This document shows positions 6,191-61,943 of a DNA stretch of 64,000 nt, one piece after another (position 1 is the first letter of the stretch; the number at the start of each line of letters is the position of its first letter). Under the pieces are notes generated by a model that was given only the letters and a program-made list of their open reading frames with translations, made no database searches and was not told the origin of the DNA. The translations under genes were made by a program, and so were the position numbers. The DNA is from Fasciola hepatica (lineage: Eukaryota; Platyhelminthes; Trematoda; Plagiorchiida; Fasciolidae): positions 1,674,001 to 1,738,000 of the forward strand of contig CANUEZ040000071.1 in assembly GCA_948099385.1 (NCBI GenBank), given 5' to 3'.

Positions 6191-6199
6191 ATAGCTATT

Positions 6200-10478: not shown

Positions 10479-10486
10479 TATATAAA
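10479..10486 (+). promoter_or_regulatory. TATA box of the MEG-like gene
   Basis: TATATAAA lies 62 bp upstream of the ATG at 10541. That leaves a start site near 10510 and a 5' UTR of about 30 nt. The octamer fits the consensus fully, but AT-rich DNA yields such matches by chance; the weight comes from its position in front of a signal-peptide exon. Confidence 0.5.
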
Positions 10487-10540: not shown

Positions 10541-10589
10541 ATGAAAATATTTCTGCTGCTCTGTTCTTTCCTTTCAGTCAATGGAACTA
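10541..10589 (+). CDS. MEG exon 1: signal peptide
   Basis: Encodes M-K-I-F-L-L-L-C-S-F-L-S-V-N-G-T plus the first base of the next codon. It has a basic residue, a hydrophobic core of about ten residues and small or polar residues at a likely cleavage site after V-N-G. It ends at a perfect GTAAGT donor (10590-10595) in phase 1. The frame would stay open into the intron for only a few codons, which supports splicing here. A signal peptide in the first coding exon followed by a phase-1 intron is standard for secreted MEG proteins. Confidence 0.65.
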
Positions 10590-16500: not shown

Positions 16501-19500
16501 ACCGATCAGAAAAGGCGATTCGTTTTCCGAGTGTTCTCCAGTTATCAAAAGAGCCACTGAGCAAATAATCTTCAGTTTCGTCACCAAAAAAAGCCATCCC
16601 CTAAACCATGTGCAGTGTAAATATTGATACAACTTCTACATTGGGAACACTCACGTGTGAGCAATCTGACCTCAGAACAATCGGACGGATAGTTGTTTCG
16701 TGGAAGAATATCTATCTTACTCATGAGATACGAAAAACGGAAGTTCCGATATGAACAACAGAAAGAAGATTAACCTAGCGAAAATCGATATAATCTAGAC
16801 CCAAACATTTCGTTGAACGAAGCTTATGTCCGTCAAGAAGGGCATGGATGGAGGTGGGTGATAACAGTCTCTGAAGATGGGTTCGTGTGCTTTCCGAACA
16901 GGTAGAGCATAGGTAACTTTTAATTCTGTGAGGTTTCACACAAGTGAATACTGTTTAGGACAAATGCGTGAACCCAAAACCGGTGGATAACCGAAGCACG
17001 AGATTCCGAGGAACAGATCAGAATTGCCCAAAGAGGGAAGGAGCACTCCTTGGAATGGAAAGCTGAAATTATATAACCATAGATCACATACTTCGTTACA
17101 ACCACATAGTAATAATGACCACGTTTGGCTGCGTGCAATTTGAATATTTTGATTTATTTATCTGCTGATTACCTTATATCGAATGGATCATGATGAACGC
17201 AGGACTGGCAAACAGAATTCTTTGTCTCTGATGACGTGTTGACCAAGTGAAATTTCTAGCATAATCACAAGAACAAATGGAAAGACTAACGTACCGAAAG
17301 CATATAAAGTTATTTGTAAATCAAAAGGAACTGTGTGTATTCTCTTAATTGGTGTTCATTTAGGTGGCCGATTACTCATACGGTCATTTGTGCACGTGAA
17401 CCGTCTGGACGATTAGCAAAATGGTGTATAATTACGTGGAAGTTGAAGTCTGAGGCTGAAAATCCTTGGTAAAGCTCGCATCAGAGGTAAACTTCTTTGA
17501 CAGTAGCTGTGAACCGTGGTACCTGTGTGAACACTACAAAGTGATATTAGTCATTTGGATCTAATGACACAGAAACTACACACATGAAGAAAGGAGTGCA
17601 GTTGATTTCTGTGATCCCTGTGTCCACTGACGCTAGCTTGGTACACCACATGAAAGGAGCACGCATCTCAGTTATTTGGGCCGTGATTCAAACTCCAGAA
17701 CATTCACGGGTTATTTCTTACTTCAATGATAAAATACTGCGTCCATTCATTAGAGGTTCTCCTTCAACACCATAGTGCTCAAAATGCTCTCAAACCCACC
17801 CTGATTTCACATGAGAACCTGTGAACCAAGCCGCGTAAAGTGACCAAACTTGACAAGCTGGTGTGTCAACCGACTACCACACCGAAAGCACACAAACATT
17901 TGGCATATTTAACAGGTAAACCGACTAGACTGGAAAATGTGCCTCAGAAGGACCAGAAAGCCATTTGACACATTTCTTGGGAAAGAGCAAAAAACACCGA
18001 AACTGGTGAGCAAAAGCAACGTCCTTTGTCGTTATTGACTCATTCCATTTGCTCGGGGATGTGTTACCGAATAGTTTTCATGTCACGCACGAACGTGAAC
18101 GGATTTCACTGAATCTACACATTCTGGTTTTTACCAGGAACCTCACATTTTTTTGAGAAGTAGAATGGTGCGCTGTTCAAGACTGTTTTACAACACAATA
18201 ATCTGAAGTAAACTACCAGGTATGAGTACTTGCCAGATTTAAAAGAGTATCTTTAGATCAAAAATAAGAATTCACAGCTTTTTGAAGGAGTTTGATCACT
18301 ATGTGACTGAGGAGAAAAGTGAAATTCAAGTTCAGATTTTAACCTAATTTAAGCATTTGGCGTTCAGAACAACTCTTACAGCCTGCACTATATCTGCGGT
18401 ACAGAAAGATGAAACCACTACCTTGGATGACTGATCACATTTTGAAAAAAACATTATTGACCGTAATCTGGGTTGCAAGGTGAACATCTACGACTGAACT
18501 CTTTCTGGATTTACAAAAAAATGAGCATATTTTTGGTTTTAAATAATCTCCGGATAGTTTTATGATTCGGTGAATAAGAACACAGCATCACTTCTATAAA
18601 TTAGTCGCCTTTTACAAAAATAACCGATGCGGTAACAAGTCTGCTAATTGAAAATTAAACAACATCATAATGGAATTTGTTCACAGTTTGAAGCCCTAAC
18701 TGATGAGGTTGTTCATTTTTTTGGATAAAATAACGGTACCACAAAAACGCATATTGCATCCTTGCAGAAATAATAAAAGTTGAACGCATAGGTGAGACTC
18801 TGCATCACAGCATGTATTTATACTTTCCACTCATTTTCAGTGATCATCTCTGCCGTCGTCACAACGCTGCCACACATTTTTCCCCGATTATGTCCAATGA
18901 GCGGAATTTGTATTCCATCCCGAGTTATGCTTCATGAATCGTATTTTAGCAGTCGGTCACTCACAAGACTAACTGGGCAAAGTTCCACGGTTTCCAGAAT
19001 GGACAACATTGAGTTTAATTGGATCTTGCGCACACTGATTTCAAATTTCAATGATTGGTTTTCAAATTTGGACATTGTGAATGCTGATTGACATTGATCT
19101 TTGGTTACAGTTCGTTTGCTTACATTATAGTACCGATGCTTCTAGCTACCCCATTTTATTGTTCTTTGCTAAACGGAACAGTTCAAAAAACAGGGTTTTG
19201 TTCTTTTGCACCAAATTGTGACCGTCTTATTCTGTCGTGAAAAGCATACCGTGCAGTGTGAGATGGTCAACAAAACACGAATATTAACTAAGTTTAATTT
19301 AGGAACAATGACGGGAATGATTAGAGGGCCATATTACTTGGAGCAATTAGCAGAATCAGATTTAGAGGAAAATCACAAAAAAGCTAAAGTGGTTTCAGGC
19401 CAAAATGTCCCAAGCTGAGTGGTGCTCAATTCGAATATCAGAAAATGATTTGTGTCCGACTATGACGTAAAAATACCGTGACAAAAACACAGTCTATCTG

Positions 19501-22500
19501 GTCTGAAGCAATCTGTTTTCATTGAGGGACGTATCTGGTAGATAACTGATAATGCTATTGCCATCTACCATCAGTCAGACAGAAATGAAACCAATCGGAA
19601 CTTACTTAGTTTTACGCGGCCAGCTTTTGCGAGGCGAACAGCCGGCTTCATGGATGTCCTGAAAAGTATCTGCTCATGAGCAGTGCGTGTAGGGGAACTC
19701 CTCATACAGATTCTCGAGGATTAGGTACGAAGTAGAGTTCCCAAAGTTAACCAGATTTTTGTTCGAGGCAGCAAATCTGACACGTGACCAATCACGTTTT
19801 ATCCTTCAAACAACAGGAGAATTATGTTTTGTGTATCAGTGAACATAAGATCTGTTTAATCATCTTTCTGATGATGGTCTGCCAGTCACGGATCCCGAAA
19901 TCGTCCCAGGATAGCTGAATGTGACAATGGCCTCACTTAATGTCAGGCCACATTCTCGCAGTTCATGCTGCTGTCTATGGGCTTCTGTGGCTTTTAGGTA
20001 GAGATTTCTCAGCCACGCAAAGATCCCACCTCACCCTCTAACAAAGCTAACTTGCAAGTATCTGGCTATTCTTCCTCGGCCTGTCCGATATGGGTGACCT
20101 TGAAGAAGCACTTCGCGCTCCAATCAGCATTGCCCTCGGGGTCACCGTAGCACGCAAACCCAATCACCACGGTAAGGTAGCCATGTCGGAACCACTCAAG
20201 TACGATTCTTCCTATCTTTGAAAATACGGTTCTACTTTGCTAGTAATTTCAAGTGACTGTGAAGTACATAAATATCTTTTTCAAGTACTCGCCTAACTAG
20301 CATTTTATCTCCGTCTTTAAGGAAGTACAACACAAAACACACGCATGAGGTTTTTTACTAAAGAAAAAACGGAAGTTGCTAGATGGATGAAATGTTTTTC
20401 CTGTGTTAGAAATAGTACCAGTTATCATATTCCAACTATTGGTTTTAGTTACGGAATATATGGACCAAAGTAAGTAACCCACCGTTTCCCTCGCGCGTCT
20501 CCTTCACCGGCTGATTTGAAGTATTTCGACTGCGGTGGGCATCCATTTTGTCCTAAAGTCTTCCACAGTGTTTTGCTCAAAAAGCAGTTCCAGGGAAGAG
20601 ACAGTTACTCAACACAGTTTATGCTGGTAATCTGACCATTAGATGCTGCCGTCCTGCAACCTGTGCGTATCATTTTTACATTACGCCACTACATCCAACT
20701 GACATGTTTACATTCTATTTGGTAGAACCTGTGTCTGTACTAAGTTAGGGCGATGGTGGTTTTCAGCATTTGATACGCAAACAAATGCGGTTTCGCCTTC
20801 ATGCTTCGTGTTGCTTATTGCGGATGCAACCTGATAGTGTTCATGCAAGCAATATATTACTGAATCTGGGTGACGGGGGAAAAATTCCCCCGAAGGTACA
20901 CGATCGGTTTCTCAGCTGTCGCTGCTGATCAGGTATGTGTACGCGGCACTCTCCTGTCCAATCACTTCGATGCGTGAACACTTCAAATTAGGTTCACCAA
21001 CTTTTTCTCCTTTGAGTCATAAAGGATGTCCTTGACTAACCGATAAAATCACCTACAAAGAATACCCTAATCATTCTAAAAATCGACTCTTCGTCCACGC
21101 ACGTTCCTCGTCATTCTAATGAGATTAAGGTGATAATGCTGTTTAAAGTTTTTAACTTGCATTCGATAAAAATCAACAACAAATTTTTGGGGCTCTTGTA
21201 GGTGAAGAGCATGGGGCCGTGAGAGCGTCAAAAATCACACCACACTGTTTAATTTTCTAGGGCAGTATAATGAGAGCAGACTGAGTCTTTATTGAACTCG
21301 ATTTACAGTAAATTAAACTAGATAGATTGTGTATGTATATATATTTTGGGTCTGTATTTTCAGGGGATTTGAGGGACACTGAAGAAAAAGTTATAGCGAA
21401 CAGAACTTCACCTCGAACGGTTGACTGCTTTGGTCCTCGTCAATATTTTTTGTCTTAGGTGTAGATTGCTTCCATGCTTGGGTTCAGTTGTTGTCGCGAC
21501 TAAATGTGTTCTCCGTTTAGATCGATTTGTTTACTTCATGAATTCGTCTCCATGATGAGAACGTTTGGAAACAGTTATCCCACAAGGAATCAGCCAGTTC
21601 ACTCAAGAAGAAACGAAAAGCTGAATCAATAAGGCATGAGCTGGAGAACAGACTAGGAACCAAACGATCCGGAGTGATGAAGGGGTGTGCTAGAAAAGGA
21701 ACTGCTGTGTTATAACTACGGAATTGATAATAATGGCTTTAGTACATAATGTAGCTTAGGTGCATTTTTAATGTAAGCCACACTGAAGCTATTCCATCAC
21801 CCTGTGGTGGGTTAAGCACCTCTGAATGGAAAGCAAACTGAAGCTATCTTTCGAACGGGCTCAATTATGGCTTTTTTAATAGATTTACATCTCATCCAGT
21901 GCACGATGGTATCAGTCAAACAATTCAGTGCTAATGTCCCGCAAAGAATCGTTTCTAAGCTATAGTATTGAAATGTGAATCAGCCAAGAAAGTTTTTGAA
22001 ATGAAGGTAAGTAGGACAACGGCACGGATAAATGGCCCATTCTATTATAGTCCGAAAGGTGAATAGAGTGGTATCAAAACTATCTTCGTAGTACTGAACA
22101 ATATGAGACGTTATTTACCTGTATCCAAGAAAAACGTCCTATGAACATATTCACGTTTGGTTGCATTCGACTTCGCATTGTTGTCAGATTTCACACGTGA
22201 ATGAAGCACCAAACATTTGACAAAATGTTTGCTTCTACCATTCATATTCTCTAAAAGGAGCCGGCAATGACAAAAATATGAAGAAAAGTCTGTCCCTGTG
22301 CTGGTTAAACATAATGGTGAAAGTTTATCAGAAAATAAAATCCATATTACGAGTCGTACTCTAGTAAAGATTGTTCTGTCCGTGAGTGTTGTTCTACGAT
22401 ATAACCAAGGTACAAAATCACATGTGGTTGGTGGCCAGCCCACACACCACCGGCCTTTATATCATAAAATTTGTTGATACTTGTGATACTGATAGTTCTT

Positions 22501-25500
22501 GGTCACCAATATGCTAGGCACAGTGTTTAATTGATAAGCCCAAATTAGATTGTCAAGCTTTTTCCCCACAGAATGTCGTCGACTGTTATGCGATAATTTG
22601 AGGTGTCCGTTTGAAGCAATGCTATGAGATCAGCCGAATGGCATAAATGTAATGGTATAAAGTAATTATCAGACAACATCCAAATAATGTGATAACTATG
22701 AACACATAAAACCTCTCGTTACACGAAGGACACCATGCCCAGCTGGATACGCAACTGAGAACCCTGGGTCTCCATTGTTTAATTCATGAGAACAGAGAAA
22801 AAAGGTGGTGATAAGCATGCATTTCGTTTATTGTTGTCAATGGTGATTCTGAATCGTCAATACATGCATGACGTAACAGGGGCGAAGCAGAACTGCTTGG
22901 TAGGTTAGATTGAAGGCTCGTACGGTGGAACAGAGGGAGGATTGTTGGAGGCAGAAGAATATTTCTTATCAACGTTTTGTTTGCTCACAGTGCTGATTGA
23001 CTTCCTCTGATAACCACTGACTCCCTGAACGCCGATAAATTCACTTTAGGTTGCACTGTCTTACGCTGACAGTTCAGGTATGACCTGCTTCGCGACCCGA
23101 TGCAATTAGGTGTCCACCAAAGTTTGACACAAAGGCATTTTTACGAACAAACCAGTATGATTTGGCTTTCCTTTCAGTATAAAACGAATAGTTTCTGTAA
23201 ACGAAAGAATATGATCTTCGATTAGTTCAACAAAGACACGCATGGAAATTATACGAATAAATTAAATCATATCCAAAATATATCTCACAGGGAGTTTTCT
23301 CTGTAAAAAATGACTTAACAGTGTCTGAAATGCTTGCATTATGTTATGTATCATGCATTCGAAACGTTCACATGATCACTGGAACCCATGGAAGCACTGT
23401 ATAGCTGTTTTGTTCTTATTAGTTGTCTTCAGAAGTGTGCTCATACTGAGCCCTCAAAGGAACACGAACTCCGGGATGAACGATTGTGAGTCGAAAACCT
23501 AACGACCAGGCTAAACGAGATGACTCCTAACGGTTAGCTGAACTTATACATCACGGTTCATAGCGCCCTGAAATACTACCCAGTGTGGCCTGGAACTAGC
23601 CAGCTTAATCGGATGAATTGGTAACGGAATCTTCGATTTGATTTTAAATATTCTCGAGTTAAACACGTTTTTGCTAAATTACTTCGGCATCACTTACAAA
23701 ATGCAATATAAGGGAGAGGGGGATTATACTAGTAGAGTCAACTGGATTGGAAGCACTCAAGGTTCATTCTAATTCACGATGGGCAGTAGCAAGTGCAAAT
23801 GCTGGCAACTCACGACCAACTTTAACTCAGGTATCGATTTTCGTCACCGTGGTTATTGATTTTCTATTTTTTCCATCATTATCGAGGTCGTGTTCTATAC
23901 CGACAAGTTGCTAGGTGCCGAAAATGAGCTTGTCTGCTATCTAATGTTTTTTTTCTTGACTTAGGTCAATAATACAAGTCGATGAGAGCCATTCTGAGTA
24001 GGACCGTCACTGTTGCTTTGTCTCTGCATGTTAATATGAGACGAAAATAGCTGAAGCTGAGAGCCTCTCTGGCTTAGTTGAAAGATTCTCTAAATGCAAT
24101 CTTTGTCAACTTTTTCACAGTGGATAGTTACTTGAATGGTGAGTATTTGTTATTTATATGGCATGTATTCTGATTTTTCATAACTTCCTCAACCATGTAG
24201 AAATAAACTGAAGCAGCCAAAAGAGGTTATCACATTTTCAAATCAGGTATGAAAAATAAAAGTACTTGTGCCCGCTCTGTCATCCACTGAGGGACGTGAG
24301 AAACACGAAAGAACTAAACAGTTGAGAGTTTATATAGTGAATCGAGATGCTGGTTGGATCGATTAAATACGTGATTGATTGTTCACATAAACCTGGAAAG
24401 CGTTAGTGACGGAATAAGCGGCTGCGATAATCTGGCGATCTCACTGAACACGCTCGTATCTTTTACTGAACACGTGATGTGCTTCATGCGTCCTCTCTTT
24501 GATCGATGCAATTTATCATCTCATCGATTGATTTGATATATTTCTTCTCTTGCAGAAAGGGGTAAGCTGGCTGGATCCGATTTTCTTACTCCTAAGTTGA
24601 CACTCTCGTCATGCCGAAATCACAGTCCCCTTGGTTCCATTAAATTGAATAGAAAGCATTGGTAATATAACTTGTGAATAGCAAAATTAAAGAGGAATTA
24701 ACTGGGGAAATATACATATGCGAGCATACTGGCCGATCCAAGTGCATGTGACTAGATTTGATTTTTCCCGCAAGCAGCACAGCGTAGCACAGCTGCCAGT
24801 GATAAAGATATTGGCAGATGAACAGCAAATTAGGAAAGCCGTACCGTATAATCAGGTTGCGCAGATGCTTTACGCAGTCGAAGTGGAAGATGCAGTTTCT
24901 TCACACAATACGAATAACTGACTGAAGAATGAAATCAACCCTGATTATCCTTGGAGTAAACTAGGCATTTGGTAACTGAAGCCAGACCATTGAGAGCTTT
25001 TGGGAAGAAATTATGCTTCGATGAGCATTATTTTTGATGCACTATTACCGTTGTCTTCCAACAAAAACACATTGTCGGTGAATCATGATGGAGAATACCT
25101 GACGGCTCTCCTCAACCAATGAAGATTTTCCTTGGAAATTAATTTGTTTTCGTGTCAAGTCGGAGAAAATGCCTGAGTGTACGACTATTTCAGATACGAA
25201 CTCTGTGTTGATAAGATTGTCAGTGTGTCTTGCAACATCTCCAAAAGCTCAAAAAAAAGGTGATCGAAGAACCACGACAGAAGAAAATGGAGGTCACTAA
25301 TTTGGATTACGATTATATTGTGAGGAAATAGATGGAAAACTTATAGTTACTTCAAAACGTGCAACTTTACGGTCTGTCAGTTAAAATAATCAGGAAGAAA
25401 CTCAATATATAAGAGACTCAAACTACAACTTGATGCTCTCAGTGCCTCCATCACAATTTCACACAAATCACAACTGGACGGTGGGGGAAGTGGGAGTAGG

Positions 25501-42830: not shown

Positions 42831-42875
<45 letters not shown>

Positions 42876-54800: not shown

Positions 54801-57800
54801 TGTGGCGAGCTAGGGCACGAAGGTAATTCTACACAGAAACCCACCGGGCGACGGACTGAACGCAGATTACAACTCACTGCTGGAAGGAGGTATCATTGAC
54901 GTATTGATGAATTCACCATCGGAAATCTAATAAACTATGGGGTGCCATTGAATTAGAAGACAGACCTGGAGGAATCGAACCAAAAAGTTGACGCTCAGTA
55001 CTCTGCCTATGGGATAAAGCAACGAAATGAAGGAACATTTACTGAGAAATCCTTGTTATCGAATCTCTACTTGCAAGGGCAGTCTGCGTAAGTAACCTCA
55101 GTTTGCCGCTAGGGTTACCTTCAACGGCTAATGAAAAGCAGAAAACATCGGTACAGTCTGTGGCAAAATATTAAATTAGGTGAATGCGGGACATTCTAGA
55201 AGCACTCATTATTGCGTCACATCAGATCATGTATTTGTCTGATTAATTGGTCCACTTACTGCCGGTGTAAATGACTCGTGCATTTTCACCCATTCTGTGG
55301 ACCATCCTCACATATTTGGTCGTACGCTGGACAGTGGCTAACGAACCAACCTGACGTGACATCCACGCTGACCGGTAGCCATCTTACGGAATAGTTTCGG
55401 CCACACCTTGAGTGGCCTTGAGCTGGAGTTAAGTACAACCTAGAAGAGTCTCATTTTACTCACGTTCATTTCAGTTCCAAGGAACTGTGAGTAGACATAC
55501 CCTTACAAATGTGATCATCTTTATTTGTGAGCAGAGGGTAGAATAGAAAGAGTGTGTATGGGGGCAAAATATTGGTTACCTCTCACTCAGACTTTTGCGT
55601 AGAAGAACATTCGTATTACAGTCAAAAGCGATTTACACTTGTCAACTTTTCGAAACAAGGGGATGAAGTAAAGAACTGTTATATGTCAGAAATGCCAAGA
55701 AATTCGGCGGATACTCCCGCCCGGTTCATTAGGATTCGCGCCGCATAAGCAAAGGTAGAGTTTTGTATATGCTAACGCGGAAAGGTACATATCAAATTAT
55801 GAGTATGGAAGATATCCGACTGATGATAGATAGACCTTGAAAAAAACTTTATAGTTTCTTTTAAGCAGGCCAGCAAAATTAACAAGGGCACAGTAGAAAA
55901 GAACAAGGAGAATACTGACAAACAAAGAATAAAATAGCATTCTGTTTACCAATAAAATGCCCAAGCTTTTGAATTTGGTAGGATAGCCGGCGCCATTACT
56001 CCACGCAGTTTGAAAAGTGAGATGACCACTTGTAATTTTCATCGACGGTGATTCCTAAATAATTGACAGAACCCACTCCTGCTTGCGATTCTGAAGAAAG
56101 GTTGGACGGATCGCAAAGATTAGCCGAGCGAAGAAGGGTTATTGTGTAATCAAGCATTTGGACACATTTGAATTCAAGCCGGCTCGAACAGACTAATCAA
56201 AAATATGAAACAGAATAATAGAAAGTTGTTGAAACCCTGGGTTTCCGAAACAAATTGACAAAGAGCCACGCCCCCAACATACTCAAATAAATGTGCCAGA
56301 TAACTGTATGAAGTATCTGCAATGCGAGGGGTGAGAAAGGATGGTTCCCTTAAGCACTCCTGAATTATTCATTGAAGGTTACCATGTTAAAACCCAGTGG
56401 TATGCTCTGAGATTTGTCGATAAAATAATCAGGCAACCATACTTTTAGGGGTGTTGGACAACGGCAAGCTTCCAGTTTACCAAGGAGGAGAAAGACCGTG
56501 GAAGAGAATCAGAGGTGGATGAATAGTCTAGGGAAGAGCATCTGGCAGACTTCGCTGATCCATCCGCGGATTTGGTTATGTGGTGGGCTAAGAAAGCAAA
56601 AGCATACAGAGTGAACCTGTTCGGTTGATTGGCAAACCGCAAGAGGCAATTGGGAATCATATAAGAATTCAAACGTTTAGAATGGCACACTCTACAAGTT
56701 TGGGATCTGATGAAATTGGAGTAGTGGGACGGAAGCCTTTAGCTAAACGACTGGAGTTGCAATGTTTGAGTGTAGAACCTGTAGTGACTGGTCCACAGCT
56801 GTCGGGAATGGAAAACGAGCAAGATTTGTTTCGGAGGGAATTAAATATATCGGTCAGAGCAACAAAACCATGTCTCAGAATTGATGACGATAGGCCATCA
56901 AGACCAATATCTGAGACCATTTTCACAGTACGAAGAAGCTCGAATACCTCTTCTATGAAGATGGGGTTAATTGTGCATCGTCTTCTGGAATGAATACATT
57001 TGGAGTGCCTTTTGACGGGTGGATGAAAACTTTGTTGATACTGCTCAAGTTGTCAGCAAATTTCACTCGTCTCGTTTTCTTTCTGCATAGAAGCCGAAAG
57101 CCTTGCCATTTTCGGGTACGATTGTGGCTACATAAAAACAGAACAGCCTAAGTTGACTCAGTCTGTTTAATCTCTTTCTTTAATAAAAGACGAATGTGTC
57201 TTACTTTCAAGTTATCCCGGGTTTCGTAGAATCATTCATTTCGTCTTCCCAAGAGTCCTAACATCGAAGAAGTGGCACTGCAGTTACCGGGGGAGAAGGT
57301 TTCCAAGAGCCAGCTAATATCGAAAAAAAACTTCATTGACATGTACAGGGTCAATCCCAAGTGTACCTTAGAATGAGAAACTGGTTCACAGCTCAATTAG
57401 CTGATAACACTGAATCATTTAAAAAGTAACAGATAAAGCACCCAATAAAGAGGAAATTCACCCAACGATCGATCTCTGTGTATCGACAGCTAGCTACTTC
57501 CTATCTATTACGCCAAACAAAGTCTTCAGTACTGCTAAGCACAGTGAATACCAAAATCAAACCAGAATATGCATGTGAAATTCTCAATGAACAGTATGGA
57601 AACTGTCCTGCAGACCATGTTATTTAGGCACACTGTTTTAGGAAAATAATAAACATTATTCGAACAAACAGAACTCAATCCAGATTCACACTTGAGAATC
57701 ACTGTTTCCAGTATCATCCCAATTAGTAGAACCATTTTCGACCGTTTTCATGGTGGATCATAACACAATGCTGACGTGTAAAATGCTTCAGAACTTTGTG

Positions 57801-60800
57801 ACGTCAGCCAACGAGCTTCTTTGACTCCGAATTCAAAAGTTTGCTTATGAAACGCTTTCTTGTATCTTATTCTCCACGTTTTATACCAAAAGTTGAAGTA
57901 TAGGTTGCCAAATGAACTCGGTTTTCCGAAGAAAGGACACGCCTTCGATTACATTTAAGTCTAGCCTACTACTGGATAATTGTATGAACTGGACATCAAC
58001 CTTGTTTCTACTTTTATAAGTCTGGAAATAGATAGCGAAGAAACAAATTAACTTGTGAATATATTTCCAAACCATTCGTGAAACATAGCCAAAAGGTTTT
58101 CGCTGTAAAATATCAATTCCCAACGTGACATCTTTCGTAGTATTCCGGGAAAATTTTAGTTACGACGGCGATGATTCCGACTTACTTCATGTGCCTCCGA
58201 TTGAAGTCCATCAACAAGCTTGGTCAGCTTTTATCCCGGCTGAGATTGCTAATTTATGTGGATGGAATATCTTGCTAGTCACTGGCAAGCTTTTCCGTGG
58301 GACTATCTACGCATAACGACTCTGAGTCATTCATGAATCATCGCACACAGAGCACTCGTCTGCAAAATGAACTGTTTGCGCGATAGGAATTCACATGTGA
58401 GAAACGAATTGTGGTTAAAATCTTTACCCTTTCATATTCAGACTGCTCTCTTGTAATAACCTTCCCAGAGAAGAATAGACTTTGTCGCTTGCAAGATTAC
58501 CGTGAGTAGTGGCACTAGAATTATTCTCCCCTCATCACCAGACATTATGCAATTATAAGGGTGTCGACCGCTTTATTAAAGTCCTCTTATACGTCAGAAA
58601 TAGTTTTGGTTATCATAAATTCTGTGCCTCTGAGTGTGTGTTGACTATTTCTGGTTAAACCAGATATTTCGTCCCAATCGATCTGATATCCGGATATTTG
58701 CAGATCGAAAGCCACCTGAATGAAAAGGAGAAAAGAGTTTCGATTATTCACTCTCAAGTTTTTTCTATAAAATACCGGATAGAAGTCATACTCAAAAGAT
58801 ATAATTGGCAAAGTTTGGAAATAATGTATGCTGCACTGACAGCGAATCTGGTCGAACGAAATGGTGTTTGTGTCACATAACCTCTGTCAGTTCATGTCAA
58901 AACTTAGGCCAAAGAAGTTGTAGATCGTGGAATGTTTGTTTGCTAGCATAGTTTGGTTGGTGAATTTTGGTTGCTTTTGTTTTGGCTGCACACATCAAGA
59001 CGCTGCTGATCAGGTTATATCGGTTAACTAGAGTTTTATATTTGATGGTGAAGGATAACTTAAAGTCCATCGAATGAGCATACAGATCAGCATTTCCGGT
59101 GATGATGTTCTGATGACCCTTGATACATCGTATTTTAGCCAGGCCGGATGACGTTCGTGAATTATCCCGATCAAAACCCTACTGATACAAATAATATAGA
59201 CGGCTCCAAAGGAATTACCATTACACTGGTTAGTAAATTTGCGAACCCTTGCACAGTGACCGGGTTGACTGAACGGAGCAATTCCGACTCGGCTTCAATG
59301 AACATTTTATGGTTCTAATTAGTGTATCTCCGTTAAAAATTTCACATAAACTGTCTGCCACAAGGAGAAGATAAATGAATAATTTCAGACCAAGGGAAGT
59401 TCTGTAGAAAGTGTGAGGGATTTAAGTGGTTACCGATCACAAAAAATAGACATGGTATGAGAAAGAAAATATCTGAAAGGCCAAGAGGCAACTTCTGCCA
59501 GCTGAACCCAACTAAATAACCAGTACATAAAAGTTGCACGTGATCATGACAATCAGCCTATAATACAGACGTTTGAAAGGAATACGTGATATTTAGAGAT
59601 GGACAAAGCTCATCTTGGATGACCCCGACGGACTAATATACCAGTAGCCTGCCAAGCGGAAGAGCTGGCTTGACGTAAGCAATCAGGTCTTCAGTAGGGG
59701 CTCTGAGAAGATCTGGAAGCCATTTTTACGGACGGTAAACCACAGCTGCTAGTTTTCGACTGAAAGCGGCCGGATGAGTCTTTTTTCAGAATTTCCAGTG
59801 GCCTTACTTCCTGCAATCCTCAGGTAGAAAATGTCACGATACATACAGCTAGTGTTAGTAAAACGTGACTACTCTGTTGAATTGACAAAACTGATCTTGT
59901 CTTGCTTACAGTTCCAATTTAAAACCAATCAGGGTTTTATGGTGAGGCAAATCTATGCAGACGGAAGTGTCTTCAGCGTTGTTCACGGAGTCCTACAGCT
60001 TTCCAAAATGAAGCAGTCAAAAACCTGGTGGAACAAAACAAGCTCACTGATCCCCCTTAGTTGCTTCTACGAGAATCCGTGCTCAAAGCACTTTGTGCAC
60101 CAAACTAAAACAGTGGCTGTTAGACTCTCAAACCAGCAATTGAAATTGATGACAAGGAAAAAAGATAGTGGAATATTGATTTTAGCTTCTATCACGGCCT
60201 TGTTCATGAAAACTTGATTGCTGTTATGAGAACAGCTTCAAACCTGAGATGAAAAGAACTGAGTCTCAACTGAAGAGCGGGATTATCTGGTTGTTCACCG
60301 AAAGCGAGGTGGTAAAGTGGCTTTGGGGTCGTAATGTTGATGAGTTACTCACCAAGCATCACGGAAAAGTCGTTTTACCGTATCATCATTCGTCAATGTT
60401 ACCAACTGAGGCTCAAAACAGAATGTGTTATTCAGTTGCAGTTGGTTTTGCCCCAACAATGGCAAAAATATCGCACATCCGCTATGATAAATGCAAAGCA
60501 GAAATCCTACACAATGGATAAGTTTCAAACCTTCCATGAGGATGTGATTACCAGACGGACATCACCAGTTGGAACTGCCCTGGAGAGTATCTTCAATGAA
60601 ACTACTCTACTAGGAAACATATGAAAGAACAACAATTTATCGAAAAACCTCACTTTTTGTGTATCACCTACTGGCCAATAACAGAACGTTGCTTAACGGA
60701 AGGAACATTGTTAGAAGATAAGCATCTTGGTTTCTTGTTCACAGCACAAGCCCCCACCCAACTCACATAATACTGTCTTCCTCACATAAACAAACAAATT

Positions 60801-61824
60801 TCCTATCTCCATCCACTGTTGACAGATGTATATTATGTGCTGCATTTGGCCATCATAGCAAGTTTGCTCATCAAATTGTTGTTCTTTCACTGCACCTATG
60901 GGGTATTTTTACCCACTTGAAGAAAGCATGCATATTGGAACACTAATCTGAGCTTGGTAAACTTCCTCACACCAAGGAGTACCTTCGGCAAAAAAATATG
61001 CAAAAACCGATGAAGAACGATCTGGAGCGAGGGCGTGCTGAGTAATCACCGACCGGTGGAACGAACTATTAAGGTACCTTTCCGTTCATCCTGTCGTTCA
61101 TTCAGCCAAGCCAAAAAAGTGCCAGCGGTATTTGACTGCTCAGCCGAATTTCGTGAGCATTCTCTAAACTTATAACTTATGTCAAGACCGGACTTGATAA
61201 AATCATTAGTCGGAGAGCTCGAACAAAAGTTGCTTCCATGGCCAGCATGAAATTGAAATCTCCCAAAGCACGTATTCAGGAAAGAAGAGACATTTTACAA
61301 ATTTTTGCTGGACTAACGAAGATCTTACCTGCAGCCTATTTGGAGTGAGATTCTTGCAAAGTTGACCTTATTTCACACTACATCGGCCTGTCGACGAAAA
61401 TCCTAACAGTAGCGGAGCAAGTTTTATTGAAGATGAGAAACGAAGTTCTTGCGGCGACGACCGTCTCTTCAGCGTCGTAGACGAAAGTACCGTCATTCAA
61501 TTTACACGACTGCTGACGTTTATGTGTAGCAAATTAAGATTCAGTTTGACTAAATAAAAAAAGGCCAGCACATATTTCATGAAATCAATACCGGAGTCGG
61601 AAAGGGCTACACGTGCAATGCAGCCGCACTGCAAAATGGTTCCTTTCAGGTGGCATTCCCTGTGGAGTACCAAGTGGATATCGATAAGTTTCATTATTAT
61701 CTTCATTCTTTGACAGGAACGTTCCGTATTAGGGACGTACTTCGCTAACTGTCTCCTGTGTGTGATCTCATGGTTATTACGGATACGGTCAAAATACTCA
61801 AAAGAGGGGTTCCATGGTACTTAA
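10541..61824 (+). CDS. Micro-exon gene (MEG-like), spliced, spanning about 51 kb
   Basis: Predicted secreted protein assembled from a signal-peptide exon and many micro-exons separated by introns of 0.1-9 kb. Core exons: 10541-10589, 15200-15211, 24121-24138, 24556-24561, 29948-29986, 36018-36038, 36168-36188, 37684-37701, 39899-39919, 42659-42679, 43412-43426, 48776-48796 (all phase 1), then 50023-50034, 54732-54746, 55475-55486, 58469-58501, 59912-59941 and terminal 61717-61824 (phase 0). A phase-changing exon between the two groups is needed; 49170-49213 is the only candidate seen. With it the total is 516 nt, about 171 residues. Several extra in-phase candidates are listed separately. In schistosomes MEGs encode small secreted proteins whose symmetrical micro-exons are skipped at will; that role is inferred by architecture only. 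Alternative: two adjacent genes, joined here by mistake. Confidence 0.55.
10825..10845 (+). CDS. Weak micro-exon candidate, 21 nt
   Basis: A T-rich tract and TCATCAG acceptor precede 21 nt that are open in phase 1 (K-T-G-E-K-I within split codons). The donor GTGACA is poor, which is why it is not in the core set. Confidence 0.2.
15050..15076 (+). CDS. Micro-exon candidate, 27 nt
   Basis: A very good acceptor (CTTCTTTTCTCCAG) is followed by 27 nt open in phase 1 (T-F-L-P-N-V-S-T). The donor GTGTAT is weak. It lies 123 bp before the next core micro-exon. Confidence 0.3.
15200..15211 (+). CDS. MEG micro-exon, 12 nt
   Basis: Acceptor CGCATGCAG after a CT-rich stretch (GTTCTTGTTTTCCC), donor GTAAGG. 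Twelve nt, phase 1 to 1, coding F-L-E between split codons. Joined to exon 1 the split codon becomes Thr. Open in all phases, so its support comes from splice sites and length. Confidence 0.45.
15212..19984. other. MEG intron, no repeat recognised
   Basis: Short chance frames only. A 69-nt stretch at 18841-18909 has an excellent acceptor and is open in phase 1, but its donor (GTATTC) is weak. Confidence 0.4.
19985..20200 (+). mobile_element. 3' tail of an RTE-type LINE (fragment)
   Basis: Contains the ordered blocks TTCTTCCTCGGCCTGTCCGA, TATGGGTGACC, GCATTGCCCTCGGGGTCACC and CACCACGGTAAGGTAG. From memory, these resemble the conserved 3' untranslated end of RTE/SR2-type LINEs of trematodes. 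No RT coding sequence was found upstream, so it would be a 5'-truncated copy, the usual fate of LINE insertions. Similarity was judged by eye only. Confidence 0.5.
20872..20970 (+). repeat. Dispersed repeat, copy 1
   Basis: Shares ordered blocks with 52345-52440 in the same orientation: TCCCCCGAA, CGGTTTC, GATCAGGTATG, GTAC and CACTCT/TACTCT. Type unknown; perhaps part of a non-autonomous element. It also contains the 19-nt palindrome at 20874-20892. Confidence 0.5.
20874..20892. repeat. Perfect hairpin, 8-bp stem
   Basis: CGGGGGAA and TTCCCCCG are separated by AAA. The left arm is absent in the second copy of the repeat (52345-52440), so it may be a local change. Confidence 0.6.
24121..24138 (+). 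CDS. MEG micro-exon, 18 nt
   Basis: Acceptor CAACTTTTTCACAG, donor GTGAGT. Eighteen nt, open only in phase 1 (D-S-Y-L-N between split codons); both other phases contain a stop. This is one of the two most constraining exons for the common phase. Confidence 0.6.
24217..24246 (+). CDS. Micro-exon candidate, 30 nt
   Basis: Ends at a GTATGA donor and is open in phase 1 (K-R-G-Y-H-I-F-K-S). The acceptor at 24216 (GAAGCAG) lies 16 nt past a stronger AG at 24200; using 24200 gives 46 nt and a stop in phase 1. Uncertain. Confidence 0.25.
24556..24561 (+). CDS. MEG micro-exon, 6 nt
   Basis: Only AAAGGG lies between a strong acceptor (ATTTCTTCTCTTGCAG-like tract) and the donor GTAAGC. Two codons' worth in phase 1: Glu/Arg across the split codons when joined to the preceding G. 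Six-nt exons are the lower end known for schistosome MEGs. It is open in all phases, so the evidence is the tight pairing of two good splice sites. Confidence 0.55.
25483..25507 (+). other. G-quadruplex candidate
   Basis: G-runs of 5, 3 and 9 separated by 4-nt loops; the last run can supply two G-tracts. It fits the four-tract rule with loops of at most four bases and lies on the coding strand of the gene's intron. Confidence 0.5.
25873..25965 (+). mobile_element. tRNA-derived SINE or tRNA pseudogene
   Basis: An internal pol III A box TAGTCTAGTGG (25879-25889) matches the consensus, and a B-box-like GGTTCAACC (25925-25933) follows 35 nt later, the normal spacing. An A-rich stretch (CATAAATAAACAAACAAAA) follows. 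No paired acceptor stem and no tRNA anticodon arm could be drawn convincingly, so a functional tRNA is unlikely. Confidence 0.55.
29648..29707 (+). CDS. Exon candidate, 60 nt
   Basis: Acceptor CTGCTCTGTTTTAG and a perfect GTAAGT donor bound 60 nt open in phase 1, including V-E-L-L-F-V-S-M-S-G and S-C-P-N-H-R. It is longer than a classic micro-exon and has an internal alternative AG, so it is kept outside the core set. Confidence 0.35.
29948..29986 (+). CDS. MEG micro-exon, 39 nt
   Basis: Acceptor CCTTTATTGTTTCAG, donor GTAAGT. In phase 1 it encodes T-Q-K-S-A-Y-S-L-G-L-N-E between split codons; phase 2 has a stop. Phase 0 is also open and gives a basic peptide, so phase 1 is chosen from the other exons. 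Confidence 0.55.
29987..30462. other. Intron between micro-exon and gypsy copy D
   Basis: A long pyrimidine tract at 30080-30118 is not followed by a usable exon. No 5' LTR of copy D was found here. Confidence 0.4.
30463..31325 (+). pseudogene. Reverse transcriptase of gypsy copy D
   Basis: The frame changes near 30660 and there are stops at about 30750, 31024 and 31177. Blocks: L-K-K-D-G-S-V near 30760, F-T-K-S-D-V-R-S-A-Y-F-H-M (motif A, Asp retained, about 30885) and L-R-M-R-L-A-S-A-P-E-A. The catalytic box reads Y-M-D-G near 31077, so the second active-site Asp is lost. C-Q-F-A-V-P-E-I-E-F-L and an S-S-A-G-V-K-P region follow near 31190-31245. Confidence 0.88.
31328..31990 (+). pseudogene. 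RNase H of gypsy copy D
   Basis: 220-residue open frame, the longest in the window. It holds D-A-L-D-A-G-I-G-A-V-L (first catalytic Asp), S-T-G-E-K-E-A-L-A-C-V (Glu), V-L-R-T-D-H-A-S-L (Asp) and V-A-D-A-L-C-R-L-P (fourth Asp), so all four catalytic positions are kept. The stop at 31988-31990 interrupts the reading before integrase, so the polyprotein is broken here. Confidence 0.9.
32150..32797 (+). pseudogene. Integrase of gypsy copy D
   Basis: The zinc module begins H-E-E-H-P-G (about 32160) and should end C-x2-C, but reads R-A-V-C-Q, so one Cys is lost. After a frame change near 32270 the catalytic core follows: the first Asp position reads I-N-I-M-G (Asp to Asn), the second Asp is present in I-V-T-D-K-S (about 32520), and Glu is present in G-I-V-E-C-Q-H-R. 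The domain is therefore inactive by substitution as well as by frameshift. Confidence 0.85.
32798..33178 (+). pseudogene. C-terminal integrase domain of gypsy copy D
   Basis: 126-residue frame in a different frame from the core, with G-P-G-T-F-V-K-L (GPF/Y-like module), S-P-I-K-V-E-I-V and a basic end R-R-S-I-R-E-R-F before the natural stop at 33176-33178. The stop lies 12 bp before the polypurine tract, as in an intact 3' end. Confidence 0.75.
33191..33201 (+). promoter_or_regulatory. Polypurine tract of gypsy copy D
   Basis: AGGGGAAGTGG directly abuts the TG of the 3' LTR, the position required for plus-strand DNA priming in LTR elements. A single T interrupts the purine run. Confidence 0.65.
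33202..33331 (+). repeat. 3' LTR of gypsy copy D, 130 bp
   Basis: Begins TGTTGTGTTC and ends GAACACAACA, a perfect 10-bp inverted terminal repeat with the TG...CA ends of LTRs, immediately after the polypurine tract. At 130 bp it is short for a gypsy LTR. No second copy was seen upstream, so the element is 5'-truncated or recombined. Confidence 0.65.
33332..36017. other. MEG intron
   Basis: No retroelement domain seen to the right of the LTR. One 6-nt exon candidate (35101) is listed. The acceptor at 34196 is followed by a stop in phase 1 and is not used. Confidence 0.4.
35101..35106 (+). CDS. Micro-exon candidate, 6 nt
   Basis: TGTTTA between acceptor TTCTGTTATTGACAG and donor GTAAGG. Phase 1 would add one Phe between split codons. 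The donor is preceded by A instead of the usual G, so confidence is lower than for 24556. Confidence 0.35.
36018..36038 (+). CDS. MEG micro-exon, 21 nt
   Basis: Acceptor AATTTCAG, donor GTAAGT. Phase 1 to 1, coding N-D-I-L-L-D between split codons; phase 2 contains a stop. It lies 129 bp before the next core exon, the closest pair of core exons in the locus. Confidence 0.6.
36168..36188 (+). CDS. MEG micro-exon, 21 nt
   Basis: Acceptor GATTTCCCAG, donor GTAAGT. Phase 1 to 1, coding E-L-T-Q-Q-R between split codons; phase 0 contains a stop. Same length as the exon before it, though the sequences are not alike. Confidence 0.6.
36189..37683. other. MEG intron with ATT-rich microsatellite
   Basis: Short frames only, no recognised element besides the microsatellite at 37019-37084. 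Confidence 0.45.
37019..37084. repeat. AAT/AATCAT microsatellite
   Basis: About 66 bp of interrupted (AAT)n with several CAT interruptions. Such tracts often follow mobile-element tails, but none was recognised beside it. Confidence 0.85.
37684..37701 (+). CDS. MEG micro-exon, 18 nt
   Basis: Acceptor with a long CT-rich tract (TTCCTCTTCATTCGTC..CCCTTATTAG), donor GTAAGT. Phase 1 to 1, coding R-G-K-P-L between split codons. Open in all phases; supported by the quality of both splice sites. Confidence 0.58.
37702..38681. other. MEG intron
   Basis: Overlapping minus-strand frames at 38194-38623 have no recognised similarity. Confidence 0.4.
38682..38925 (+). mobile_element. tRNA-derived SINE
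   Basis: The 70-nt head (38682-38751) has an A-box-like CGGCTGAGTGG (38686-38696), a B-box-like GGTTAGAAACC (38731-38741), one mismatch each, and a 6-bp acceptor-like stem TGACGG/CCGTCA (38683-38688 with 38745-38750). No CCA and no complete cloverleaf. A tRNA-unrelated body follows and ends in an A-rich run near 38925. This structure is that of a Ser/Leu-type tRNA-headed SINE. Confidence 0.6.
39190..39430 (-). mobile_element. tRNA-derived SINE remnant
   Basis: On the minus strand a B box AGTTCGAAGCC (complement of 39365-39375) lies downstream of a degenerate A-box region (complement of about 39400-39420, G-rich). The body continues to about 39190. Orientation is opposite to the SINE 270 bp to the left. 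The pol III promoter is damaged, so it is dead. Confidence 0.5.
39899..39919 (+). CDS. MEG micro-exon, 21 nt
   Basis: A very strong acceptor (CTTCTTATTCCGCTTACAG) and donor GTGAGA. Phase 1 to 1, coding A-N-R-I-Y-Q between split codons; phase 2 contains a stop. An overlapping donor GTGTGA two bases earlier would give 19 nt and break the frame. Confidence 0.55.
39920..42658. other. MEG intron
   Basis: Nothing recognised. A minus-strand frame at 41316-41498 starts with a hydrophobic, signal-like stretch but lacks any gene context. A good acceptor at 41332 has no donor in phase. Confidence 0.4.
42659..42679 (+). CDS. MEG micro-exon, 21 nt
   Basis: Acceptor AATTATTTCAATTTGCAG, donor GTAAGT. Open only in phase 1 (F-S-E-L-N-P between split codons); both other phases contain stops. 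With 24121 it is the strongest evidence for the shared phase. Confidence 0.62.
42834..42872. repeat. (AT)n dinucleotide microsatellite
   Basis: 39 bp of uninterrupted TA repeats in the intron, 155 bp after a micro-exon. Can form a cruciform; likely length-polymorphic. Confidence 0.95.
43412..43426 (+). CDS. MEG micro-exon, 15 nt
   Basis: One of the best acceptors in the window (ACTTCCTTTTGTTCTTCCAG) with donor GTGAGT. Phase 1 to 1, coding S-A-I-T between split codons. Open in all phases. Confidence 0.58.
44757..44821. repeat. Compound inverted repeat
   Basis: TGCATTCGTT (44757-44766) pairs with AACGAATGCA (44812-44821), and GTTCACAC (44775-44782) pairs with GTGTGAAC (44807-44814). The right arms overlap by three bases, so the two stems compete in part. 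Might be a small element terminus or a structured remnant. Confidence 0.6.
46012..46023 (+). CDS. Micro-exon candidate, 12 nt
   Basis: A perfect GTAAGT donor and 12 nt open in phase 1 (S-M-T). The acceptor GGTAATGCAG lacks a clear pyrimidine tract. The alternative acceptor at 45984 gives 39 nt with a stop in phase 1. Confidence 0.3.
48776..48796 (+). CDS. MEG micro-exon, 21 nt
   Basis: Acceptor TATGTCTTCCGTAACAG, donor GTAAGT. Phase 1 to 1, coding K-D-I-A-S-K between split codons; phase 0 starts with a stop, so it cannot belong to the phase-0 group further right. Last exon of the phase-1 series. Confidence 0.6.
48797..50022. other. Interval where the reading phase must change
   Basis: Phase-1 exons end at 48796 and phase-0 exons begin at 50023. 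Candidates inside are the 44-nt exon at 49170 and an acceptor at 49526 that would give a short phase-1 terminal exon (D-P-F-V-E-V-Q-S, stop at 49549), without an AATAAA nearby. Confidence 0.4.
49170..49213 (+). CDS. Phase-changing exon candidate, 44 nt
   Basis: Excellent acceptor (TTCAACTTTTCGACTCCAG), 44 nt open in phase 1 and leaving in phase 0, exactly what is needed to join the two exon groups. The donor GTAGTC is poor, so this is tentative. Confidence 0.22.
50023..50034 (+). CDS. Micro-exon, 12 nt, phase 0
   Basis: Acceptor AATTTTCATTACAG and perfect donor GTAAGT around AAGTGTGAGGAC. In phase 0 it reads K-C-E-D; in phase 1 it contains a TGA. So it either opens the phase-0 part of the gene or is a stop-introducing (poison) exon for the phase-1 series. 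Confidence 0.5.
50035..54731. other. MEG intron
   Basis: Holds the second copy of the dispersed repeat (52345). A fine acceptor at 53686 is followed 8 nt later by GTGAGA, which would break the frame. Short frames elsewhere are unremarkable. Confidence 0.4.
52345..52440 (+). repeat. Dispersed repeat, copy 2
   Basis: Same-orientation partner of 20872-20970, with shared blocks TCCCCCGAA, CGGTTTC, GATCAGGTATG and CTCT. Function and family unknown. Confidence 0.5.
54732..54746 (+). CDS. Micro-exon, 15 nt, phase 0 compatible
   Basis: Strong donor GTAAGTATA; acceptor TTGTGCTTCGTTAG is acceptable. In phase 0 it reads R-E-E-S-T; open in all phases. The acceptor is the weakest of the phase-0 core set. 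Confidence 0.4.
54747..55796. other. Intron around the 55475 micro-exon
   Basis: Apart from the micro-exon at 55475-55486 nothing is recognised. The right end may contain the 3' UTR of the minus-strand LINE that ends near 55797. Confidence 0.4.
55475..55486 (+). CDS. Micro-exon, 12 nt
   Basis: Excellent acceptor (TTTTACTCACGTTCATTTCAG) and donor GTGAGT. In phase 0 it reads F-Q-G-T; open in all phases. Confidence 0.55.
55797..57160 (-). pseudogene. Reverse transcriptase of a non-LTR retrotransposon (CR1/jockey-like)
   Basis: Minus-strand LINE ORF2 remnant in broken frames. In order: a region before RT with I-F-I-E-E-V-F-E-L-L (about 56980), D-I-G-L-D-G-L-S-S-S-I-L (RT block with G-x-D-G-L, about 56910), P-D-S-C-G (about 56820), F-R-P-T-T-P-I-S (about 56730), L-D-Y-S-S-T-S-D-S-L-P-R-S-F (motif A, about 56530), G-T-I-L-S (motif B, about 56340) and Y-V-G-G-V-A-L-C at the catalytic box (56270-56281), where both aspartates have become Gly. 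It then continues with L-N-S-N-V-S-K-C-L and a G-L-L-K-R-N-Y-K end near 55860. Endonuclease sequence was not found upstream. Confidence 0.75.
57161..58468. other. MEG intron
   Basis: May include the 5' part of the LINE, but no endonuclease motif was found. Otherwise unremarkable. Confidence 0.4.
58469..58501 (+). CDS. Micro-exon, 33 nt, phase 0
   Basis: Acceptor AATAACCTTCCCAG after a CT-rich stretch, donor GTGAGT. In phase 0 it reads R-R-I-D-F-V-A-C-K-I-T; phase 2 contains a stop and phase 1 is open. Phase 0 is chosen because its neighbours at 50023 and 59912 exclude phase 1. Confidence 0.5.
58502..59911. other. MEG intron
   Basis: No mobile element recognised. The exon-like stretch after the acceptor at 59795 ends at GTAGAA after 25 nt and would break the frame. 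Confidence 0.4.
59912..59941 (+). CDS. Micro-exon, 30 nt, phase 0
   Basis: Acceptor GATCTTGTCTTGCTTACAG, donor GTGAGG. Phase 0 reads F-Q-F-K-T-N-Q-G-F-M; phase 1 contains a stop. It is embedded in a longer open frame (59831-60217), so its boundaries rest on the splice sites. Confidence 0.5.
59942..61716. other. Last intron of the MEG-like gene
   Basis: Open frames at 59831-60217 and 60249-60624 have vague LINE/Penelope flavour but no decisive motif. Nothing else seen. Confidence 0.35.
61717..61824 (+). CDS. Terminal exon candidate with stop codon
   Basis: Acceptor ATCTTCATTCTTTGACAG. Phase 0 gives 35 codons and TAA at 61822-61824; phase 2 stops after four codons and phase 1 after about ten. 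The peptide has a hydrophobic segment Y-F-A-N-C-L-L-C-V-I-S-W-L-L followed by basic residues, possibly membrane-active or a membrane anchor. AATAAA follows 114 nt after the stop. An internal GTATTA nine nt into the exon is a possible donor. Confidence 0.42.
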   Translation, partial: ERSVLGTYFANCLLCVISWLLRIRSKYSKEGFHGT

Positions 61825-61937: not shown

Positions 61938-61943
61938 AATAAA
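61938..61943 (+). terminator. Polyadenylation signal AATAAA
   Basis: Canonical hexamer 114 nt downstream of the TAA of the terminal exon. Such hexamers are common in AT-rich DNA, so it supports but does not prove the gene end. Confidence 0.45.

What the first reader, a model, noticed from the sequence alone, without database searches (positions are those of the whole stretch)
10541..61824. A probable micro-exon gene spread over about 51 kb
Seen: a signal-peptide exon ending in GTAAGT, then at least sixteen intervals of 6-39 nt, all multiples of three, each between a pyrimidine-rich AG and a GTRAG donor, all on the plus strand, and a plausible terminal exon with stop and AATAAA. A comparable hand scan of the minus strand gave one such interval (8476-8487). 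Known: schistosome micro-exon genes have this layout and make secreted variant proteins. Inferred: this is a member, or a MEG-like gene in another flatworm, too small to be found by ORF-based annotation.
Basis: partly seen in the sequence, partly recalled or inferred. Interest (0 to 1): 0.92.

Follow-up and report, generated by a model that had tools for sequence, protein, structure and literature searches.

The report
Micro-exon gene in a fluke genome
About 51 kb of a flatworm (probably fluke) genome appears to hold one gene chopped into a dozen or so tiny coding pieces behind a secretion signal, the layout of schistosome 'micro-exon genes', and two diverged copies elsewhere in the genome keep most of that layout.

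Summary
A rescan with scored splice sites finds 3n micro-intervals (6-69 nt) on the plus strand far above every control: at score 13 or more, 9 (3n) against 1 and 0 for the other length classes and 2, 3, 0 on the minus strand; 1500 Markov simulations never exceed 7. The phase fixed by the 49-nt signal-peptide exon (10541-10589, TATA box at -62) is the most open one (13 of 16). The window's own 1.5-Gb genome holds two further copies, about 91% identical, that keep exon 1, its donor and most micro-exons. The longest three-copy perfect run in the 51 kb is centred on a 39-nt micro-exon. I count 11 well-supported micro-exons, four weaker ones and an uncertain 3' end. Best reading: a micro-exon gene (MEG) of a non-schistosome digenean. 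The layout is met by prediction; transcription and kinship to named MEG families are untested. Against: single micro-exons of the copies carry stops or lost sites, and changed codons show no purifying pattern. New member of a known kind; interest about 0.5.

The parts
10479..10486 (+). TATATAAA box, 62 nt before the start codon
   Evidence: TTTATAAAC (B71) and TATATAAAC (B232) at the same place in the copies
10541..10589 (+). Exon 1, 49 nt: start codon and signal-peptide-like sequence; ends with one base of a codon (phase 1); donor GTAAGTAC
   Evidence: 49 nt and donor GTAAGTAC kept in B71 and B232
18768..18791 (+). Weaker candidate micro-exon, 24 nt
   Evidence: sites kept and open in phase 1 in A, B71, B232; score just under 11
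20410..20469 (+). Weaker candidate micro-exon, 60 nt
   Evidence: score 11.4; sites kept in both copies; stop in phase 1 in B232
23423..23485 (+). Micro-exon, 63 nt
   Evidence: score 13.2; sites kept and open in phase 1 in all three copies
24121..24138 (+). Micro-exon, 18 nt
   Evidence: score 14.5; exon identical in three copies; open in phase 1 only
24556..24561 (+). Micro-exon, 6 nt
   Evidence: score 15.5; sites kept in both copies; two base changes in B71 leave Arg in phase 1
27311..27334 (+). Micro-exon, 24 nt
   Evidence: score 11.2; lies in the 7th longest three-copy perfect run of the 51 kb (61 nt)
29948..29986 (+). Micro-exon, 39 nt
   Evidence: score 14.5; lies in the longest three-copy perfect run of the 51 kb (81 nt)
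36168..36188 (+). Weaker candidate micro-exon, 21 nt, found by the joint scan
   Evidence: and in B232 scanned alone; stretch absent from B71
37194..37223 (+). Weaker candidate micro-exon, 30 nt
   Evidence: sites kept and open in B232; stretch absent from B71
39899..39919 (+). Micro-exon, 21 nt
   Evidence: score 14.5; exon identical in B71; sites kept but stop in phase 1 in B232
42659..42679 (+). Micro-exon, 21 nt
   Evidence: exon identical in three copies; open in phase 1 only; acceptor AAG in B232
43412..43426 (+). Micro-exon, 15 nt, or 9 nt from a second acceptor at 43418
   Evidence: highest score of all (18.5); both B copies have a stop in the 6 nt before the second acceptor
48776..48796 (+). 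Micro-exon, 21 nt
   Evidence: score 12.2; sites kept and open in all three copies
55475..55486 (+). Micro-exon, 12 nt
   Evidence: score 12.4; identical in B71; AG lost and donor weakened in B232
58442..58501 (+). Micro-exon, 60 nt, or 33 nt from a second acceptor at 58469
   Evidence: score 14.4; kept and open in B232; 59 nt with a GC donor in B71
61717..61748 (+). Tentative terminal coding stretch: acceptor, 9 codons in phase 1, TAA
   Evidence: same stop in both copies
61938..61943 (+). AATAAA, candidate poly(A) signal
   Evidence: B71 has AATAAA at other places, B232 none within 400 nt of the acceptor
62298..62407 (+). Alternative terminal exon: acceptor, 35 codons in phase 1, TGA
   Evidence: open with the same stop in both copies; no AATAAA within 400 nt
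30753..32794 (+). Broken Ty3/gypsy-type pol remnant inside an intron
   Evidence: Pfam RVT_1 and rve (both below curated cut-off) and RT_RNaseH on separate frames; also at the corresponding place of B71

Best explanation
The plus strand of about 10.5-62 kb is one MEG-type gene, probably of a digenean fluke other than a schistosome. A TATA-driven transcript starts just before 10541. The first exon supplies a signal peptide and leaves one base of a codon. Eleven well-supported and four weaker micro-exons, all multiples of three and read in that same phase, follow across long introns (0.4-12.8 kb between the well-supported ones), and a terminal exon, not yet fixed, supplies the stop. Because every micro-exon is symmetric, any of them can be included or skipped without shifting the frame, so one gene can make a set of secreted peptides that differ by a few residues. 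Shown here: the 3n excess, the mostly shared phase, and retention in two copies. Inferred: transcription, skipping, secretion, and a role at the host interface.
For: 3n excess on plus beyond every control. The phase predicted by exon 1 is the most open: 13 of 16 at score 11 or more, stops 13/3/5 in phases 0/1/2. Exon 1 is the most hydrophobic of 118 ATG-to-donor candidates in the window and has a TATA box. In two copies at about 91% identity, exon 1 length, donor and TATA-like box persist; phase-1-open 3n intervals at 11 or more keep sites and frame in 23 of 25 copy comparisons, against 2 of 6 for the phase-1-closed ones and 7 of 14 for 3n on minus. B71 scanned on its own gives 7/0/1 on plus and 2/1/4 on minus at 12 or more, and 11 of its 12 plus 3n intervals at 11 or more are open in phase 1; 10 of the 12 lie at window candidates. 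The longest and 7th longest perfect runs lie on micro-exons 29948 and 27311. 56 long frames inside the region show only retrotransposon Pfam domains plus one marginal DUF.
Against: No transcript evidence. The phase test alone is weak (p about 0.06 on stops, 0.13 on open exons). Site retention of same-strand non-3n intervals is also high (10 of 12 and 14 of 17), partly because some reuse sites of 3n exons. Changed codons show no purifying pattern: A-B71 in phase 1 syn 4, nonsyn 7, stop 1; A-B232 4, 14, 3. Copies carry stops or lost or weakened sites in 20410, 39899, 43412, 55475 and 58442; B232 scanned alone has only 9 of 13 open in phase 1. The 3' end is uncertain and the expected long 3' exon was not found. 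Conventional exons are not excluded: 10 of 60 plus intervals of 70-300 nt are open in some phase.
Confidence: 0.84

Rival explanations
1. The micro-exons are real but belong to two or more neighbouring transcripts, or to a longer gene that starts or ends outside 10541-61748; exon 1 is only one of its starts.
For: Two terminal exons are possible (61717 and 62298), and 57091 or 46507 could end a shorter form in the window copy; 9.9 kb separate 29986 from 39899 in the well-supported set. The flank to the right of the window could not be fetched.
Against: The well-supported micro-exons of the window copy are all open in the phase set by exon 1, though they were chosen partly for that; only one other hydrophobic start exon (23388) passed the cut and it would give another phase. 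The 57091 and 46507 endings are not kept alike in the copies.
Confidence: 0.3
2. The locus is a decayed or decaying MEG: the gene family is real but some or all copies no longer make protein.
For: Stops and lost sites in single micro-exons of both B copies; more nonsynonymous than synonymous codon changes.
Against: The damaged exons could be skipped without a frame shift; exon 1 and the most conserved micro-exons are intact in all copies. The window copy shows no damage in the listed exons, but they were chosen as open. High dN/dS is reported for schistosome MEGs (PMC4350168, passages).
Confidence: 0.25
3. Chance: short AG...GTRAG intervals picked out of 51 kb of intron or intergenic sequence.
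For: At score 10 the control classes also hold 3-8 intervals open in a given phase, so some of the weaker ones must be chance.
Against: Zero of 1500 simulations reach the observed counts or chain score; the other strand, the other length classes and two copies agree.
Confidence: 0.03
4. The spliced RNA is real but non-coding, a long RNA with many tiny exons.
For: No purifying pattern in changed codons.
Against: A non-coding RNA gives no reason for lengths divisible by three or a shared open phase, nor for a signal-peptide start exon.
Confidence: 0.05

Closest known systems
Schistosoma mansoni / japonicum micro-exon genes (MEG families)
   Same: Signal peptide in the 5' exon, central run of short symmetric exons, long introns, a TE remnant in an intron (MEG loci are reported as enriched in TE insertions, PMC4350168, passages)
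   Different: Introns up to 12.8 kb if the weak exons are not used, against up to about 5 kb in S. mansoni (PMC10526429, passages); 5' coding exon only 49 nt and no long 3' coding exon found, where the MEGs of PMC4671649 (passages) have two long flanking exons; the nearest named TE relative points to another digenean
Tapeworm MEGs (Hymenolepis microstoma, Echinococcus multilocularis)
   Same: Same layout; the published H. microstoma family motif begins MRLFILLC (PMC7653826, passages), which resembles the start of exon 1 here; short hydrophobic signal peptides often look alike, so this is a lead only
   Different: The tapeworm motif continues with a CPKQCP stretch that is not in exon 1 here
Group 2 VAL-6 of S. 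mansoni (composite VAL/MEG-like gene)
   Same: Part of the gene is a run of tiny symmetric exons (PMC4350168, passages)
   Different: No SCP or other conventional domain among the Pfam matches of 88 long frames of the window; shorter exons would be missed

Membership tests
Micro-exon gene (MEG) | At least 7 exons, at least half of them shorter than 70 nt and divisible by three, with at least 4 such exons in a row (criteria of PMC7653826) | tested here: met
   By prediction only: 11 well-supported internal micro-exons in one phase
Micro-exon gene (MEG) | Signal peptide mostly or wholly in the first exon | tested here: met
   Hydropathy screen: exon 1 is the most hydrophobic of 118 candidates; no dedicated signal-peptide predictor was available
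Micro-exon gene (MEG) | Two long flanking exons at the 5' and 3' ends (PMC4671649) | tested here: inconclusive
   49-nt coding 5' exon, leader inferred to be short from the TATA box; 3' exon 61717 has 9 codons, alternative 62298 has 35
Micro-exon gene (MEG) | Alternative splicing that skips micro-exons and yields protein variants | not testable with these tools
   No RNA data; alternative acceptors at 43412/43418 and 58442/58469 are compatible
Micro-exon gene (MEG) | Product secreted or surface-exposed, expressed in glands or epithelia of host-dwelling stages | not testable with these tools
   No expression data
Micro-exon gene (MEG) | Sequence similarity to a named MEG family | not tested
Micro-exon gene (MEG) | Found in parasitic flatworms | tested here: inconclusive
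   Nearest named relative of the intronic element is from Dicrocoelium dendriticum, 62% identity; species not identified

The most novel reading that the evidence does not exclude
In a non-schistosome digenean, a MEG locus has been copied at least twice, and the copies diverge exon by exon: because every micro-exon is symmetric, single exons may take a stop or lose a splice site (39899, 43412, 55475, 58442 in the copies) while exon 1 with its donor and a core of identical exons (24121, 27311, 29948, 42659) persist. In 43412 the stop of both B copies lies in the 6 nt that a second in-frame acceptor would leave out. Symmetric micro-exons would then be disposable units in gene evolution as well as in splicing.
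Probability: 0.3. Interest if true: 0.65.

Novelty: new member of a known kind. Interest (0 to 1): 0.5.

Why it matters
MEGs are described from schistosomes and tapeworms. My paper searches (capped listings; passages read in eight papers and the abstract and outline of a ninth) showed me no MEG described from another fluke. [quoted passage not shown] A MEG in a non-schistosome digenean would help fill that gap and would bear on whether the layout is tied to living in blood. It also shows that splice-site scoring, the length-mod-3 test, phase and paralogue comparison together can point to such genes without RNA.

Tried and rejected
Rejected intervals: 23965 (acceptor lost in B232, closed in phase 1), 50023 (sites lost in B71, closed), 59912 (donor GT lost in both copies, closed), 51640 (acceptor AG lost in both), 35101 (acceptor lost in B232, unmapped in B71), 43030 (one base shorter in B71, where stops appear), 35706 (closed in phase 1 although its sites are kept in B232). 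Rejected endings: 57091 (B71 lacks the AG; other stops in the copies) and 46507 (stop at once in both copies).

Led nowhere: Rfam on the window, 0 matches at gathering; protein search with the frame at 5141, 128 candidates and none at E 0.001; exon-1 codon pattern in the whole genome: 30 places, of which 4 are the known copies; 20 of the 30 became loci, the script found the motif on the stored strand in 9 of these 20 (the window's own and 8 others), and 7 of those 8 have no comparable donor within 147 nt while one (L047) has a phase-0 donor at 120 nt; five of the 8 share a TTGCAG repeat sequence. The other 18 of 26 places were not read. A DNA search with 181 bases around micro-exon 29948 at E up to 10 found only the same four places; the pattern search for more diverged copies and the search with the 3' end never got an answer.

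Limits: the splice-site weights are a recalled consensus. The 14-exon list used was chosen from the window's own scores and phase, so those counts are not blind; exon sites differ at 44 of 797, flanks at 578 of 7271. Perfect runs could be scored only where both copies align (46,994 columns). The most conserved 120-nt window ties between 22370 (no exon known) and 29880. B71 and B232 differ by 6-11% while A and its C232 copy agree at 99.9%, so I treat B71 and B232 as separate copies, but divergent haplotypes are not excluded.

Full report
What was claimed. The finding names only a few of the sixteen.

Is it more than chance. I scanned both strands with two rules. The simple rule gives 11/0/2 intervals on plus for length mod 0/1/2 and 2/3/3 on minus; one of the 11 lies in exon 1 and one is nested. 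The scored rule, confined to 10590-61716 and made non-overlapping, gives at score 12, 13 and 14: plus 12/4/5, 9/1/0, 6/0/0; minus 4/3/2, 2/3/0, 0/1/0. In 1500 order-4 Markov simulations of the plus strand the 3n count never exceeded 10, 7 and 4. The chain score of 3n intervals open in phase 1 is 64.9 on plus, 21.7 on minus, simulation mean 12.3, maximum 37.4. Earlier runs with order 3 and 5 chains (150 each, best of three phases) had maxima of 33.1 and 32.7, and every mod-1 and mod-2 class scored 23.0 or less. The weights are a recalled consensus; the agreement of two rules makes that less of a worry.

One phase. Exon 1 has 49 nt, so it hands on one base. At score 11 or more, 16 plus-strand 3n intervals hold 13, 3 and 5 stops in phases 0, 1 and 2, and 13 of 16 are open in phase 1. 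Randomising the phase per exon gives p of about 0.06 (stops) and 0.13 (open exons): supportive, not decisive alone. No 3n interval of 81-150 nt listed inside the region on plus was open in any phase, but over 70-300 nt and all length classes 10 of 60 plus intervals are open in some phase, so a conventional exon is not excluded. The start exon is special: among 51 plus and 67 minus ATG-to-donor candidates two pass the hydrophobicity cut, and 10541 scores highest, with a perfect donor and a TATA box 62 nt before it.

Copies in the same genome. The window is contig C71:1674001-1738000 of a 1.5-Gb, 656-contig assembly. The exon-1 region has four places: the window, a 100% match on C232, and matches of 93% on C232 and 90% on C71, the last in inverted orientation 470 kb away; the micro-exon 29948 region gives the same four. 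I fetched 70 kb at each of the other three. One C232 stretch is 99.9% identical to the window and adds little; the other two (B71, B232) match the window at 91.4% and 91.1% of aligned columns and each other at about 89-94%. Both keep exon 1 at 49 nt with donor GTAAGTAC and a TATA-like box. For phase-1-open 3n intervals at score 11 or more, sites and frame are kept in 23 of 25 comparisons; for phase-1-closed ones in 2 of 6; for minus-strand 3n in 7 of 14. Against this, plus-strand mod-1 and mod-2 intervals keep theirs in 10 of 12 and 14 of 17, partly because some use the same sites as 3n exons. Scanned alone, B71 gives 7/0/1 on plus and 2/1/4 on minus at 12 or more, and 11 of 12 plus 3n intervals at 11 or more are open in phase 1; B232 gives 9/2/3 and 2/1/1, with 9 of 13 open.

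Which exons. Identical in all three copies: 24121, 27311, 29948, 42659. The longest perfect run in the 51 kb (81 nt) covers 29948 and the 7th longest (61 nt) covers 27311. Kept and open in all three: 23423, 24556, 48776, and the weaker 18768. Kept in part: 39899 (stop in B232), 43412 (stop in both B copies, which the second acceptor 6 nt on would avoid), 55475 (AG lost and donor weakened in B232), 58442 (frame and donor lost in B71), and the weaker 20410 (stop in B232). The weaker 36168 and 37194 lie in a stretch that B71 lacks. The eleven that I call well supported are 23423, 24121, 24556, 27311, 29948, 39899, 42659, 43412, 48776, 55475 and 58442, 300 nt in all, with introns of 0.4-12.8 kb between them. 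The 3' end is open: 61717 with stop 61746-61748 and AATAAA 61938, or 62298 with stop 62405-62407; the AATAAA is not at the same place in either copy. Changed codons show no purifying pattern; over the 14-exon list, exon sites differ at 44 of 797 and flanks at 578 of 7271.

What else is in the region. 88 stop-to-stop frames of at least 85 residues, 56 of them in 10.7-61.8 kb, show only retrotransposon domains plus one marginal DUF. A broken Ty3/gypsy-type pol remnant at 30.7-32.8 kb lies in an intron and at the matching place in B71. Its RNase H frame is nearest, among named proteins, to Dicrocoelium dendriticum (62%); the genome is very likely not that species, since that protein finds at best 72% (127 matches; 126 of 17,916 candidates scored). 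So the source is probably another digenean; it is not named.

How it most likely works. Inferred from layout and from MEG literature: one long transcript is spliced so that symmetric micro-exons are kept or skipped, and a signal peptide sends the small variable products out of the cell. For schistosomes this is reported (passages: PMC10526429, PMC4350168, PMC5825161, PMC4671649; abstract and outline: PMC12998952). Nothing here shows transcription, secretion or a host target.

Kin. The published layout criteria for MEGs (PMC7653826, passages) are met by the predicted gene; the 'two long flanking exons' of PMC4671649 (passages) are not clearly met; kinship by sequence was not tested, because the pieces are too short to search alone and I left them unjoined. 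Papers: passages of PMC7653826, PMC5825161, PMC4413821, PMC7263636, PMC10526429, PMC4350168, PMC4398949 and PMC4671649; abstract and outline of PMC12998952; PMC10399815 in a listing only; DeMarco 2010 not held, recalled only.

Verdict. It is a new member of a known kind; interest 0.5.

Noticed in passing
window 22365-22530: About 165 nt with only two variable or gapped columns among three copies that otherwise differ at 13% of aligned columns; no phase-1-open 3n interval at score 10 or more there. Possibly a regulatory element or an unseen exon.
   Followed up: partly
window 9903: The copy B71 stops matching about 640 nt before exon 1 in the 568 nt of further sequence held, so the duplicated unit includes the promoter; to the right it matches to the window end.
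   Followed up: partly
G000 contigs C429, C468, C471, C552 and others: COX1 matches spaced 14.2-14.9 kb within single contigs: head-to-tail mitochondrial copies in the assembly, with in-frame TGA as expected of a mitochondrial code.
   Followed up: no
L033, L034, L037, L040, L047: A dispersed sequence that begins like a signal-peptide start and shares TTGCAG; it can mislead searches for MEG start exons in this genome.
   Followed up: partly
window 8100-8450: A frame rich in Lys and Cys without a Pfam match.
   Followed up: partly
window 1-10 kb or 61.7-64 kb (member of alignment A2 not identified): A second RNase H frame (RT_RNaseH, E 2.3e-15) and a sub-threshold integrase zinc-binding match at 6110-6382: further gypsy-type remnants.
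   Followed up: partly
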